Part shown: positions 20,902-34,905 of the stretch, one piece after another
Numbering within the stretch: position 1 is the stretch's first letter
How the letters are laid out: each line of letters opens with the position of its first letter
NCBI GenBank assembly: GCA_013286765.1
Contig: JABDFB010000003.1
Span: forward strand, 1 to 49,628
Length of the DNA: 49,628 bases
Origin: Deltaproteobacteria bacterium
GTDB taxonomy: Bacteria; Bdellovibrionota; UBA1018
Reading direction: 5' to 3'
Position numbers and translations under genes: made by a program
Notes under the pieces: generated by a model
What the model saw: the letters and a program-made list of their open reading frames with translations, nothing else
The model's database searches: none
Told to the model about the DNA's origin: nothing

Positions 20902-21051
20902 CTCTAATGTGTCTCGGGCATCAGAAACTAAAAAAGGCCCGATCCTATCGGATCGAGCCTTTTCTAAAATTTCCTTTGATTCTCGCAATTTACCCGTCAG
21001 TTAAACTGATGAGCCATGATGGATTCGAACCATCGACCCTCACATTAAAAG
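20902..21051 (-). repeat. Left end of genomic island: duplicated tRNA-Lys 3' part and terminator (attL-like)
   Basis: Bases 21003-21051 are identical over 49 bases to 34826-34874, the 3' end of the intact tRNA-Lys gene. The match stops exactly at the 5' edge of the anticodon loop. Bases 20902-20986 match 34726-34810 at 82 of 85 positions and include the tRNA terminator. A short divergent patch lies between the two blocks. This is the classic footprint of a tyrosine-recombinase element integrated at a tRNA gene. Confidence 0.85.
20932..20963 (-). terminator. Rho-independent terminator (left copy)
   Basis: A 14-bp stem (AAAAGGCTCGATCC read on the minus strand, one G-T wobble) with a 4-base loop is followed by T6 on the minus strand. 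It originally ended the tRNA-Lys transcript. Being nearly symmetrical, it can also stop the dipZ transcript coming from the left. Confidence 0.8.
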
Positions 21052-21290
21052 AGGGATTGGCTGCTTGTGGTGTAACTAGCGAAAAACAAAGCGAAATTGA
21101 AGAAAATAGTCTAGAGAAAATTGTTCAAAACTCTCTGAAAGTTTCTGAAAAAATCTCAATGATTCCGCAACCCGCTGTTGGGTCGTGTGTCTCTAATGTG
21201 TCTCGCCCGGATGAACTCGTCGAAAGTTCCCCGCAAAACGTTGACGAATTCAATTCTGATAAGGGGGAGCATTCAATGGAACCAACATAA
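21052..21290 (+). other. Island-end remnant with open frame, no recognised product
   Basis: The frame running through the tRNA remnant stays open for another 79 codons to a TAA at 21288. The peptide is hydrophilic and Glu/Ser/Asn-rich (EKQSEIEENSLEKIVQNSL) and may be the end of a deleted backbone gene. Bases 21187-21205 hold GTGTCTCTAATGTGTCTCG, identical to 34722-34740 just outside the tRNA at the other end. The N-terminal part of this frame is antisense tRNA and is not a real protein. Confidence 0.35.
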
Positions 21291-21297
21291 AAGCAAA

Positions 21298-21321
21298 AAG
21301 CCCAAGGTCTCCCTTGGGCTT
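21298..21321 (-). terminator. Rho-independent terminator
   Basis: AAGCCCAAGG and CCTTGGGCTT form a perfect 10-bp stem with a 4-base loop. The minus strand continues into a T-run interrupted by GC. It sits 10 bases beyond the stop codon of the small minus-strand fragment at 21332-21424, so it probably ended that gene. Confidence 0.7.
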
Positions 21322-21331
21322 CTTCTGAAAT

Positions 21332-21424
21332 TTATCTGTCAGCTTCTATCTTTTCCCGGATTCGAGCTGACCATCCTGTAACCGAAATTGCTTTCGCAAT
21401 TTCTGGGCTCTGCTTCTCCAAGCT
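21332..21424 (-). pseudogene. 3' remnant of an unidentified backbone gene
   Basis: A 30-residue coding-like tail (EKQSPEIAKAISVTGWSARI, then REKIEADR and a TAA) is preceded by an in-frame TAA at 21425 instead of more gene. The stop followed at once by a strong terminator supports a genuine gene end. The family is not recognised. The 5' part must have been deleted when the region decayed, or replaced by the parA segment next to it. Confidence 0.3.
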
Positions 21425-21449
21425 TTAAGGAGGGCGGGCCTTTAAGTCA

Positions 21450-21905
21450 ATGGAGAAATTTATGAGTTTTTTTGAAAATAGAATCATTGCCGTCACCAAT
21501 CAAAAAGGCGGAGTCGGAAAAACAACAACAGCAGTCAATTTGGCCCAGGCCTGCGCATTGGGCGGCGAAAAAGTTTTGGTCCTTGATTGTGAGCCCCAAG
21601 GAAATGCTACGCAGGGTCTTGGAATACACCTCGAATCGGTTCGGGCGTCCATGTCCGATTTACTTCGAGATAAGAACTTCCCGACTCGCTCGGCAATCTA
21701 TCGTGGGAATAGCTTCGATATTATCCCTGGTACCCCTCTCCTAGCTTCCGTTGAAAGAGAAATGGTGGGATCCACTAATAGTGAATTGCGCCTTGCTCGC
21801 CACATTCAAACCATAAAGTCTGATTACTCCATTGTGATTATAGATACGCCGCCAGCATTTGGCCCTTTCGGTATTGAACACAATTTGATCCGACACCACC
21901 AATGA
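21450..21905 (+). pseudogene. parA: ParA/Soj-family partition ATPase, C-terminally truncated
   Basis: The first 135 or so residues are a good ParA: deviant Walker A NQKGGVGKTTTAVNLAQA, the LVLDCEPQGNAT motif and Walker B IVIIDTPPAFG. After that the similarity stops and the frame ends at 151 residues, compared with about 250 in intact members. AAGGAGGG lies 15 bases upstream of the first ATG. The missing half carries residues needed for DNA binding and dimerisation, so it is most likely inactive. It is the clearest sign that the island once had a plasmid- or ICE-like backbone; no parB is present. Confidence 0.8.
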
Positions 21906-33297: not shown

Positions 33298-33310
33298 TTG
33301 ATTCTCTCTT

Positions 33311-34462
33311 TCACGCCGCGCGCGGCGGGATCACCATGGGTTTGATGCATTCATCGAGCTTGCTCGAAAACACGTGGTACGCCTCGTTGATCTCCTCCAG
33401 CGGGAAGCGATGGCTGATCACGTCCTTGGGATTAATATGCGCCTGTTCGATATGGAAAAAGCAGCGGCCGATGTTCCGTTTCACGCTCGCCTGATTCATT
33501 CTCATATTGATGCCCTTGTTCATAGCGTCTCCGATCTTGACGATATTGGGCACCGGGCCATACACACCGATGATAGAAACATTGCCACCTTTCCGGACAG
33601 AGTCGATGGCCCAGTTGAGAGGCGTGGCAGAGCCCCCTTGCAACTTTAAAGTCATTCCAAGCGCTCTTTGCGCAAAATTGCCGCGGGATTCACAACCTAC
33701 GGCATCGATGGCGCAGTCCCAGCCGAGCCAGTCGGACTCCTTCTTTAGATGCCAGACCATATCGGATACCTCTCGGAAGTTGAGTGTCTCGCACTGGGCA
33801 AACTTCTTGGCGAACTCGAGGCGATAGTCATACTCATCGACAATGAGCACGCGTCCCGCGCCCATGAACCAAGCGCATCGGGCAGCAAAAAGTCCGATCG
33901 GACCAGCCCCGAAGACAACCACTGAGTCTCCCTTTTTAATGTTCGCCATTTCCGCGGCCTGGTACCCGGTTGGATAGGCGTCCGCACATAAAACGGCGTT
34001 GTCATCGTCGATTCCGTCGGGCACATGGATCAATCCCACGTCCGCGAAAGGCGTGCGCACGTACTCCGCCTGTCCGCCGTTATATCCGCCGGTAAGATGT
34101 GAATAGCCGTAAAAGCCTCCGGACACTGTCGCAAAAGGGTTTGTGTTGTGGCAGTTGCTGTAAAGTCCCTTCTGGCAGAAGAAGCATTCACCGCAGGAGA
34201 TACTGAATGGCACGACCACCCGGTCACCTACCTTGATTTTGTGCACGTCGGAGCCGATCTCTTCCACAATGCCGACCATCTCGTGGCCAAAAGTTTGTCC
34301 GATCCGCGTATCAGGTACGAGACCATGATAGAGATGAAGGTCTGAGCCACAGATGCAGGCCCTCGTCACCCGAACAATTGCGTCCCGAGGGTGCTCGATT
34401 TCGGGCATGGGCTTGTCTACTGCTTTGACCCGGTAGGGCCCTTTGTACGTCGCTGCTAGCAT
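33311..34462 (-). CDS. Zinc-dependent alcohol dehydrogenase (formaldehyde dehydrogenase-like)
   Basis: A 383-residue medium-chain dehydrogenase. Catalytic zinc ligands are in ACICGSDLHLYHG and GHEMVGIVEE; the structural zinc site is CGECFFCQKGLYSNC. The Rossmann motif is VVVFGAGPIGLFAA and the cofactor-selecting Asp is in VLIVDEYDYRL (NAD-type). The long insertion FATVSGGFYGYSHLTGGYNG resembles glutathione-independent formaldehyde dehydrogenases. It could feed or drain the aldehyde pool handled by the paoABC-like enzyme. GGGAGAGG precedes the ATG. GC content and codon use look foreign to the neighbouring core genes. Confidence 0.88.
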   Translation of the reverse strand: MLAATYKGPYRVKAVDKPMPEIEHPRDAIVRVTRACICGSDLHLYHGLVPDTRIGQTFGHEMVGIVEEIGSDVHKIKVGDRVVVPFSISCGECFFCQKGLYSNCHNTNPFATVSGGFYGYSHLTGGYNGGQAEYVRTPFADVGLIHVPDGIDDDNAVLCADAYPTGYQAAEMANIKKGDSVVVFGAGPIGLFAARCAWFMGAGRVLIVDEYDYRLEFAKKFAQCETLNFREVSDMVWHLKKESDWLGWDCAIDAVGCESRGNFAQRALGMTLKLQGGSATPLNWAIDSVRKGGNVSIIGVYGPVPNIVKIGDAMNKGINMRMNQASVKRNIGRCFFHIEQAHINPKDVISHRFPLEEINEAYHVFSSKLDECIKPMVIPPRAA

Positions 34463-34487
34463 AAGATCCTCTCCCTTCGCGCTGTTT

Positions 34488-34622
34488 TCACGCTTGTTTG
34501 ATATTTAAAGGCCAATTGTGAACGACCTTATTTTTAGCAAAGCGTGATCCAGCGCGGCGGCCGGCGACGATCAATCCTCCCACCAACAGACCGAGCGCGA
34601 ATCCGCGGAACGTAGATCCCAA
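34488..34622 (-). CDS. Possible small membrane protein or gene remnant
   Basis: A 44-residue TTG-started frame has a glycine-rich hydrophobic helix (FALGLLVGGLIVAGRRAG) and then a basic tail. It ends 25 bases before the alcohol dehydrogenase start on the same strand. An in-frame TGA lies just upstream of the TTG, so this may be the end of a truncated membrane protein at the island's right edge rather than an intact gene. Confidence 0.35.
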   Translation of the reverse strand: MGSTFRGFALGLLVGGLIVAGRRAGSRFAKNKVVHNWPLNIKQA

Positions 34623-34725
34623 AGACAGGCGTCATTGCGCAAAGCGAAGGTCAGAATATTTCAGAAAGTTCTAGAACGCTGCAGACCAGTTCGACATTGT
34701 CGTCAAAAAACGGCAATTTGAGTGT

Positions 34726-34874
34726 CTCTAATGTGTCTCGGGTATCAGAAACGAAAAAAGGCCCGATCCTTTCGGATCGAGCCTTTTCTAAAATTTCCTT
34801 TGATTCTCGCCTGTTACCGCCTGAAAAACTGATGAGCCATGATGGATTCGAACCATCGACCCTCACATTAAAAG
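34726..34874 (-). repeat. Right end of genomic island: repeat overlapping tRNA-Lys (attR-like)
   Basis: This is the right-hand partner of the repeat at 20902-21051. It covers the anticodon-loop-to-3'-end half of the intact tRNA-Lys plus its terminator. Just to the left, 34722-34740 reads GTGTCTCTAATGTGTCTCG, itself two GTGTCTC units separated by TAAT, a possible recombinase arm site. Confidence 0.85.
34756..34787 (-). terminator. Rho-independent terminator of tRNA-Lys
   Basis: Same 14-bp stem as the left copy, with loop GAAA on the minus strand and a T6 tail, 45 bases downstream of the tRNA 3' end. Three point differences from the left copy are seen across the 85-base block, one of them in this loop. 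Confidence 0.8.
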
Positions 34875-34905
34875 TGTGATGCTCTACCAACTGAGCTAAT
34901 GGCTC
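34833..34905 (-). tRNA. tRNA-Lys (anticodon UUU)
   Basis: A 73-base cloverleaf read on the minus strand. The acceptor stem GAGCCAT pairs with ATGGCTC and the discriminator is A. The D arm is TAGCTCAGTTGGTAGAGC, the anticodon stem TCACA/TGTGA closes the loop CTTTTAA, and the T arm contains GGTTCGAATCC. CCA is not encoded (TCA follows). It lies 67 bases downstream of purA in the same direction and serves as the integration site of the island on its 3' side. Confidence 0.97.

What the first reader, a model, noticed from the sequence alone, without database searches (positions are those of the whole stretch)
20902..34905. Stress-tolerance genomic island inserted at the anticodon loop of tRNA-Lys(UUU)
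A 49-bp perfect direct repeat of the tRNA 3' part, ending precisely at the 5' edge of the anticodon loop, flanks 13.8 kb of genes with one theme: protein folding (CbpM, CbpA, GrpE, DnaK), acid resistance (HdeD), aldehyde and peroxide handling, and thiol repair. Anticodon-loop integration is a known tyrosine-recombinase pattern. The cargo recalls transmissible stress-tolerance loci in spirit but has a different gene set, so it may be an undescribed island type.
Basis: partly seen in the sequence, partly recalled or inferred. Interest (0 to 1): 0.78.

Follow-up and report, generated by a model that had tools for sequence, protein, structure and literature searches.

The report
Worn-down tRNA-Lys island carrying stress genes
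A 13.8-kb block of protein-folding, aldehyde- and oxidant-handling genes sits between an intact lysine-tRNA gene and a broken-off copy of that gene's end, most likely the remains of a mobile element that inserted there and then lost its insertion enzyme.

Summary
The repeat is real and longer than reported. A 49-bp exact copy (21003-21051 / 34826-34874) covers 44 bp of tRNA-Lys(UUU) plus 5 bp downstream and stops at C32, the first base of the anticodon loop. It is the inner end of a 153-column, 92%-identical duplication that also holds the tRNA's terminator. A third, 19-bp repeat (two GTGTCTC, 11-bp period) lies on both arms of the reconstructed circular junction, like integrase arm sites. No integrase was found; ParA is cut short near the left end. 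Best reading: an anticodon-type tRNA genomic island, integrase lost, cargo accreted. This is a common kind (2083 of 3919 islands in Islander are anticodon-type). It is not a tLST. Only the ADH-orf191 pair looks foreign by codon composition. The decisive empty-site test could not be run, because no Bdellovibrionota genome was reachable. 'Undescribed island type' is not shown.

The parts
34831..34906 (-). intact tRNA-Lys(UUU), regenerated target gene
   Evidence: ARAGORN, Rfam RF00005 76.6 bits
34826..34874 (-). 49-bp core, right copy (44 bp of tRNA from C32 to the 3' end + 5 bp)
   Evidence: exact match to 21003-21051
21003..21051 (-). 49-bp core, left copy: displaced 3' tRNA fragment
   Evidence: exact match
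20899..21002 (-). left arm: tRNA-downstream copy with terminator (hairpin 20928-20967)
   Evidence: 11 mismatches and 1 gap in 104 columns against the right arm; terminator scan
34723..34825 (-). right arm: tRNA-downstream copy with terminator (hairpin 34754-34789)
21187..21205 (+). 19-bp repeat X (GTGTCTC twice, 11-bp period), candidate arm-type site
   Evidence: exact copy of 34722-34740; 3 matches in the window with up to 3 mismatches, none in 100 shuffles
34722..34740 (+). 19-bp repeat X, candidate arm-type site on the other arm
20898..20916 (+). degenerate X, 2 mismatches
21051..21290 (+). open frame continuing out of the core, stop followed by a hairpin; possibly the orphaned 3' end of a gene that crossed the attachment site (inferred)
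   Evidence: coding score 0.096 against at most -0.043 in the other five frames; no family, no homologue found for the joined frame
21450..21905 (+). ParA partition ATPase, cut short (151 aa)
   Evidence: PF13614 1e-35, profile 2-130 of 177; phrog_164 ParA-like
22014..22340 (-). CbpM-like (MerR_2)
   Evidence: PF13591 2.3e-10; no NCBIfam match
22330..23280 (-). CbpA-like J-domain co-chaperone
   Evidence: PF00226 + PF01556
23418..23975 (+). GrpE
   Evidence: PF01025 1.6e-46
23953..25854 (+). DnaK
   Evidence: PF00012 5.3e-265; start placed at MARTIGIDLGTTNS
25875..26498 (-). HdeD-like membrane protein (DUF308)
   Evidence: PF03729; NF007577 HdeD 49 bits, cut-off 189
26595..28781 (-). PaoC-like molybdopterin subunit
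   Evidence: PF02738/PF20256; best NCBIfam PaoC 613 bits, cut-off 1180
28778..29857 (-). PaoB-like FAD subunit
   Evidence: PF00941, PF03450
29791..30357 (-). PaoA-like [2Fe-2S] subunit, matching the PaoA model only from position 49
   Evidence: NF008514 238 bits, cut-off 322
30430..30957 (+). peroxiredoxin (AhpC/TSA)
   Evidence: PF00578 1.2e-35
30954..31496 (+). DsbA-like thioredoxin-fold protein
   Evidence: PF13462, PF01323
31500..32699 (+). histidine kinase with RsbRD_N region
   Evidence: PF14361, PF00512, PF02518
32722..33297 (-). orf191, orphan family paired with the ADH
   Evidence: no Pfam family; 179 hits including itself
33311..34462 (-). zinc-dependent alcohol/formaldehyde-type dehydrogenase
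   Evidence: PF08240, PF00107; best NCBIfam fdhA_non_GSH 171 bits, cut-off 637

Best explanation
The segment is the remnant of a mobile element that integrated by tyrosine-recombinase strand exchange in the anticodon loop of tRNA-Lys(UUU). The element brought its own copy of the tRNA 3' part and of the tRNA's terminator, so the gene next to purA stayed whole and terminated while the host's original 3' end was pushed 13.8 kb away, beside dipZ. The element had a plasmid-like ParA and probably an attachment site flanked by integrase arm sites. Later, cargo replaced the region from inside parA to near the right end, and the integrase went with it, so the island is now fixed. The cargo supplies an extra Hsp70 team (DnaK, GrpE, CbpA held in check by CbpM), a molybdenum aldehyde oxidase, a zinc alcohol/aldehyde dehydrogenase with partner orf191, a peroxiredoxin, a DsbA-like protein and a sensor kinase. 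Shown: both tRNA copies, their ends, the arm repeats, the gene families, the truncated ParA, and that no integrase was found. Inferred: the recombinase, the order of events, the loss, and the stress function.
For: 49-bp core ending exactly at C32. Joining the flanks at the core gives an intact tRNA-Lys (true by construction) with the left arm's terminator. The fragment is the 3' part, lies downstream and has the tRNA's orientation, as the Islander filters require. X occurs on both arms of the reconstructed circle, 85 and 135 bp from the core; arm-type repeats flank the attachment cores of mycobacteriophages, e.g. Pixie, whose 47-bp core overlaps a tRNA-Lys gene (PMC3203893, passages). ParA breaks off after DTPPAFG. 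The core has 0 differences in 49 bp against 12 in 104 columns of the arms, which fits a core made identical by recombination between already diverged arms (weak: the arms also hold a 39-bp identical run).
Against: No integrase among the 15 island ORFs scanned or in six frames of the two ends (its plus frames lacked about 21460-22030; overlapping ORFs elsewhere in the island were not scanned). The arms are 88% alike outside the core, which simple integration does not predict. No empty site was seen. Most cargo genes have the flanks' GC3. The joined 165-codon frame has no relatives found.
Confidence: 0.7

Rival explanations
1. Tandem array worn down: two related elements entered the same tRNA-Lys. 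The left arm (20899-21002) is what remains of the first element's arm, and the island is the second. This explains why sequence outside the core is also duplicated and why X is degenerate on the left. (A variant of the best explanation.)
For: Arms homologous beyond the core, starting at X on both sides; left X has 2 mismatches.
Against: About 50 bp separate dipZ's stop from the left X, so nothing else of a first element is left to see; a host terminator captured by the element explains the arm as well.
Confidence: 0.15
2. No site-specific event: a tRNA-Lys segment with its terminator was duplicated by ordinary recombination, or a tandem tRNA pair decayed, and the genes between are resident.
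For: The duplication exceeds the core; no integrase found; cargo composition mostly like the flanks.
Against: The left fragment ends exactly at the first base of the anticodon loop, one of the known crossover sites, and the third X copy lies on the island side of the left core, which a duplication does not give.
Confidence: 0.12
3. A real island whose stress theme is a coincidence: several unrelated acquisitions at a hotspot, each with its own history. (Compatible with the best explanation of the site; odds are not exclusive.)
For: Five or six transcription units in both orientations; only ADH and orf191 are composition outliers, GC3 0.66-0.67 against 0.41-0.52 for the other cargo and flank genes; in 7 of 8 plasmid records with orf191 the 17-30 kb held shows the ADH-orf191 pair but none of the other cargo by tblastn.
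Against: One of the 8 records, Rhodococcus pyridinivorans plasmid pA, has ADH-orf191 and clpB-cbpM-cbpA-grpE-dnaK within 12 kb, so the combination recurs once.
Confidence: 0.45

Closest known systems
tRNA-targeted genomic islands of the anticodon subsite (Islander class A)
   Same: Whole tRNA at one end, 3' fragment downstream at the other in the same orientation, sharp end at the anticodon loop, 13.8 kb.
   Different: No integrase found; homology runs 104 bp past the core and includes the terminator.
[quoted passage not shown]
   Same: Mobile-looking block of protein-quality, envelope and redox genes, HdeD-type protein in both.
   Different: No Hsp20, Clp ATPase, YfdX, KefB, FtsH or DegP among the 15 ORFs scanned; has DnaK-GrpE-CbpA-CbpM and aldehyde oxidoreductases instead.
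Mycobacteriophage attachment sites with arm-type repeats (CrimD, Pixie; PMC3203893)
   Same: Repeats on both sides of a core taken from a tRNA or tmRNA gene; CrimD has a putative terminator between core and arm site.
   Different: Here the repeats are unproven, the host unrelated, and the integrase gone.
Plasmid-borne chaperone clusters (Sphingomonas koreensis conjugative plasmid; Rhodococcus pyridinivorans pA)
   Same: J protein, DnaK and GrpE on mobile DNA; pA also has an annotated CbpM and the ADH-orf191 pair.
   Different: Those have ClpB; matched proteins are 32-63% identical to the window's.

Membership tests
tRNA genomic island (Islander filters, PMC4383910) | tRNA fragment reaching the 3' end, downstream, same orientation, 2-200 kb from the tRNA | tested here: met
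   filters read
tRNA genomic island (Islander filters, PMC4383910) | crossover at a known tRNA subsite (anticodon) | tested here: met
   core ends at C32; 2083 of 3919 Islander islands are anticodon-type
tRNA genomic island (Islander filters, PMC4383910) | tyrosine integrase ORF (PF00589) in or overlapping the island | tested here: not met
   0 of 15 ORFs; ends in six frames (with the gap stated)
   no Bdellovibrionota genome reachable
tLST | core genes dna(MerR-like)-hsp20-clpG | tested here: not met
   a MerR_2 protein is present but no Hsp20 or Clp ATPase among 15 ORFs; core genes as stated in PMC8290217 (passages)
Integrative and conjugative element | relaxase and type IV secretion genes | tested here: not met
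   none among 15 ORFs
Element with integrase extending across attP (Mx8, SSV type) | integrase frame continuing through the core | tested here: inconclusive
   165-codon open frame across the joined junction but no integrase similarity

The most novel reading that the evidence does not exclude
A distinct mobile proteostasis-redox-aldehyde island family of Bdellovibrionota, moved by a tyrosine integrase whose attachment site carries the tRNA's own terminator between the core and paired arm sites, and whose integrase reading frame crosses the core, so that integration trims the enzyme and helps to lock the island in place.
Probability: 0.12. Interest if true: 0.55.

Novelty: new member of a known kind. 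Interest (0 to 1): 0.35.

Why it matters
It documents a probably fixed, integrase-less anticodon-type island in Bdellovibrionota with an Hsp70 set and aldehyde/peroxide defences; what these do for the cell is a guess. If the terminator-bearing attachment site is confirmed, it shows how an element can spare both a tRNA and its transcription end. The ADH-orf191 pair, shared by several phyla, is a small, testable unknown of its own.

Tried and rejected
Own genome: none held. In the phylum of that genome 53 of 58 genomes had a purA match, best per genome 38-48%. 22 of 25 further genomes behind dipZ loci had one at 42-51%. So the empty-site test was not done. None of 11 purA loci from that phylum has a tRNA in the 2.9-4.3 kb held (a 12th locus, a weak match, was not given). 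purA profile (18 of the 120 listed hits aligned) in viral contigs: 76 loci, best full-length 49%.

Exact core (42 bp) or X in IMG/VR: 0 and 0; X in the 96 loci then held: 0. ParA and the tail frame in IMG/VR: no relative. Phage records: 29 matches; the 20 listed cover 45-60 bp of the tRNA-like stretch only.

Integrase tail idea: joined frame against 5.8 billion proteins, 324 candidates, none at E 0.01; no PHROG or Pfam match. The codon score that favours the frame is weak evidence: the 104-bp left arm scores up to 0.119 in a minus frame. Kept only as inconclusive.

orf191 in sampled genomes: 0 of 247 in the phylum of G069, 0 of 229 in the class of G081, 0 of 58 in the phylum of G001, 2 of 385 in the class of G065; the tool warns for the first three that an empty answer shows nothing without a positive control. 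Its fold model (37 of the 120 listed hits aligned) is poor, mean pLDDT 64, pTM 0.35, and was not searched.

Island DnaK as a marker of origin: full-length matches in 58 genomes were 56-61% identical (65% over 500 residues in one); on plasmids 37 of 275 records at 60-80%, none higher; uninformative. HdeD matched 2 plasmid records, CbpA 591, PaoC 1100, all under 60%; co-location was checked only in loci I fetched. MerR_2 was found in 1 of 2 genomes and in 4 of 14 controls, not followed. PADLOC gave only weak ATPase-domain matches for ParA and the kinase.

Papers: searches for a tRNA-Lys or anticodon-loop island gave 0 and 7 papers, for Bdellovibrio with genomic island, tRNA and integrase 10, for CbpM/CbpA/genomic island/DnaK 37, 10 listed. 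Judged by listing only, none describes this island; that is no proof of absence from print. Searches served the comparison.
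Full report
What is there. ARAGORN finds one tRNA in the window, Lys(UUU), at 34831-34906 on the minus strand (Rfam), with purA on its upstream side and the island on its downstream side. A 49-bp exact copy of its 3' part lies 13.8 kb away at 21003-21051, about 155 bp after dipZ's stop. On the tRNA strand the identity starts at C32, the first base of the loop CTTTTAA, and ends 5 bp past the tRNA. In the whole window only three exact repeats reach 18 bp; they are 39, 49 and 19 bp long and all belong to this site, against a longest repeat of 14-17 bp in 20 Markov sequences.

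The third repeat. The 19-bp sequence X, GTGTCTCTAATGTGTCTCG, is two copies of GTGTCTC with an 11-bp period. It is at 34722-34740, at 21187-21205, and with 2 mismatches at 20898-20916, and nowhere else in the window with up to 3 mismatches. If the island is closed into a circle at the core, the two exact copies lie on either side of the core, 85 and 135 bp away. In mycobacteriophage CrimD two pairs of 11-bp arm-type repeats flank the core and a putative terminator lies between core and P3; in Pixie, whose 47-bp core overlaps a tRNA-Lys gene, five of six proposed arm sites are in direct orientation, two left and three right of the core (PMC3203893, passages). The likeness is suggestive and untested. 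Heptamers repeated with an 11-bp period occur at four places in the window, two of them X, so the period alone is not rare; the 19-bp identity and the position are the argument.

Junction details. At the left end an open frame leaves the core and stops at 21290, just before a hairpin; its codon score is 0.096 against at most -0.043 in the other five frames, and 34617-34874 has a frame at 0.081 against at most 0.016. The same score reaches 0.119 in a minus frame of the short left arm, so it is weak evidence on such lengths. Joined across the core the two frames make 165 codons without a stop. [quoted passage not shown] But the joined frame has no relatives found and no family, so this stays a guess. 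Next to it a ParA ATPase breaks off at 151 residues, and the 3' end of the CbpM gene is 108 bp on. The simplest history is that the cargo replaced everything from inside parA to near the right end, integrase included.

Integrase. None among the 15 island ORFs scanned, nor in six frames of the two ends. The Islander integrase filter is not met, while its fragment, position, orientation and length filters are. Islander counts 2083 anticodon-type islands among 3919 (passages), so the site is an ordinary one.

Cargo. 13 of the 15 ORFs have Pfam families: ParA, CbpM-like MerR_2, CbpA-like, GrpE, DnaK, an HdeD-like DUF308 protein, a three-gene PaoABC-like molybdenum aldehyde oxidoreductase, a peroxiredoxin, a DsbA-like protein, a histidine kinase with an RsbRD_N region, and a zinc dehydrogenase; the tail frame and orf191 have none. 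For the 10 cargo proteins given to NCBIfam no match shown reaches its curated cut-off, and CbpM has none, so the names are family-level calls. The PaoA-like subunit matches its model from position 49 on, so it seems to lack the leader region and export is doubtful (inference). No response regulator for the kinase was among the ORFs scanned.

Is the cargo foreign? GC3 of ADH and orf191 is 0.66-0.67; the other cargo genes are 0.43-0.52 and the nine flank genes 0.41-0.51. So composition marks only that pair. orf191 (191 aa) has 179 hits at E 0.001 including itself, with named examples from Gammaproteobacteria, Verrucomicrobiae and Vicinamibacterales. It occurs in 8 of 72,556 plasmid records, from Alpha- and Betaproteobacteria, Bacteroidota and Actinomycetota, and in 8 of 8 a related dehydrogenase lies directly upstream. 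Of two genome loci found in the class of G065 (L034 is titled Alphaproteobacteria), L185 has the pair and L186 shows no dehydrogenase in the stretch held. One of the 8 plasmids, Rhodococcus pyridinivorans pA, also carries clpB-cbpM-cbpA-grpE-dnaK, all within 12 kb. A Sphingomonas koreensis conjugative plasmid has J protein-dnaK-grpE among other stress genes and a tyrosine recombinase. Such sets do travel, but the window's gene order was not seen again in the loci I fetched.

Host and the missing test. The named purA relatives among the 120 listed (68-73%) are Bdellovibrionota, Bdellovibrionia, Oligoflexia and Bdellovibrio entries, plus one called only 'bacterium', so the window is most likely from Bdellovibrionota.

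Known kinds. The tLST core is dna-hsp20-clpG (PMC8290217, passages); Hsp20 and Clp ATPases are absent among the ORFs scanned, so this is not a tLST, though both pair chaperones with redox and HdeD-type genes. I file it as a tRNA-Lys anticodon-type genomic island without an integrase, hence a remnant.

Verdict. Real structure, probably a fixed island, ordinary in kind. The unusual points are the terminator-bearing arms, the X repeats on both sides of the core, and a CbpM-accompanied Hsp70 set in a Bdellovibrionota island.

Noticed in passing
32722-34462: orf191 and the zinc dehydrogenase form a two-gene unit found in several phyla; orf191 has no Pfam family and a conserved core (GWGSDLDP, RPGVP.DKAP, KSTEHGKLTPVFG, SEGR).
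   Followed up: partly
L189 837-12600 (Rhodococcus pyridinivorans plasmid pA): clpB-cbpM-cbpA-grpE-dnaK and ADH-orf191 within 12 kb on a plasmid typed as mobilizable.
   Followed up: partly
16132-16494: 120-aa ORF with weak PHROG hits (E about 0.01) to replication initiation proteins, left of the island; no Pfam match. Possible further mobile remnant.
   Followed up: partly
8089-10695 and 43275-45572: Two large ankyrin-repeat proteins (868 and 765 aa), plus an RCC1-repeat protein at 10970-12433 (Pfam).
   Followed up: no
34500-34640 (-): Short minus-strand frame with a membrane-anchor-like stretch (RGFALGLLVGGLIVAG) between the ADH and the right end; may be a small cargo gene.
   Followed up: no
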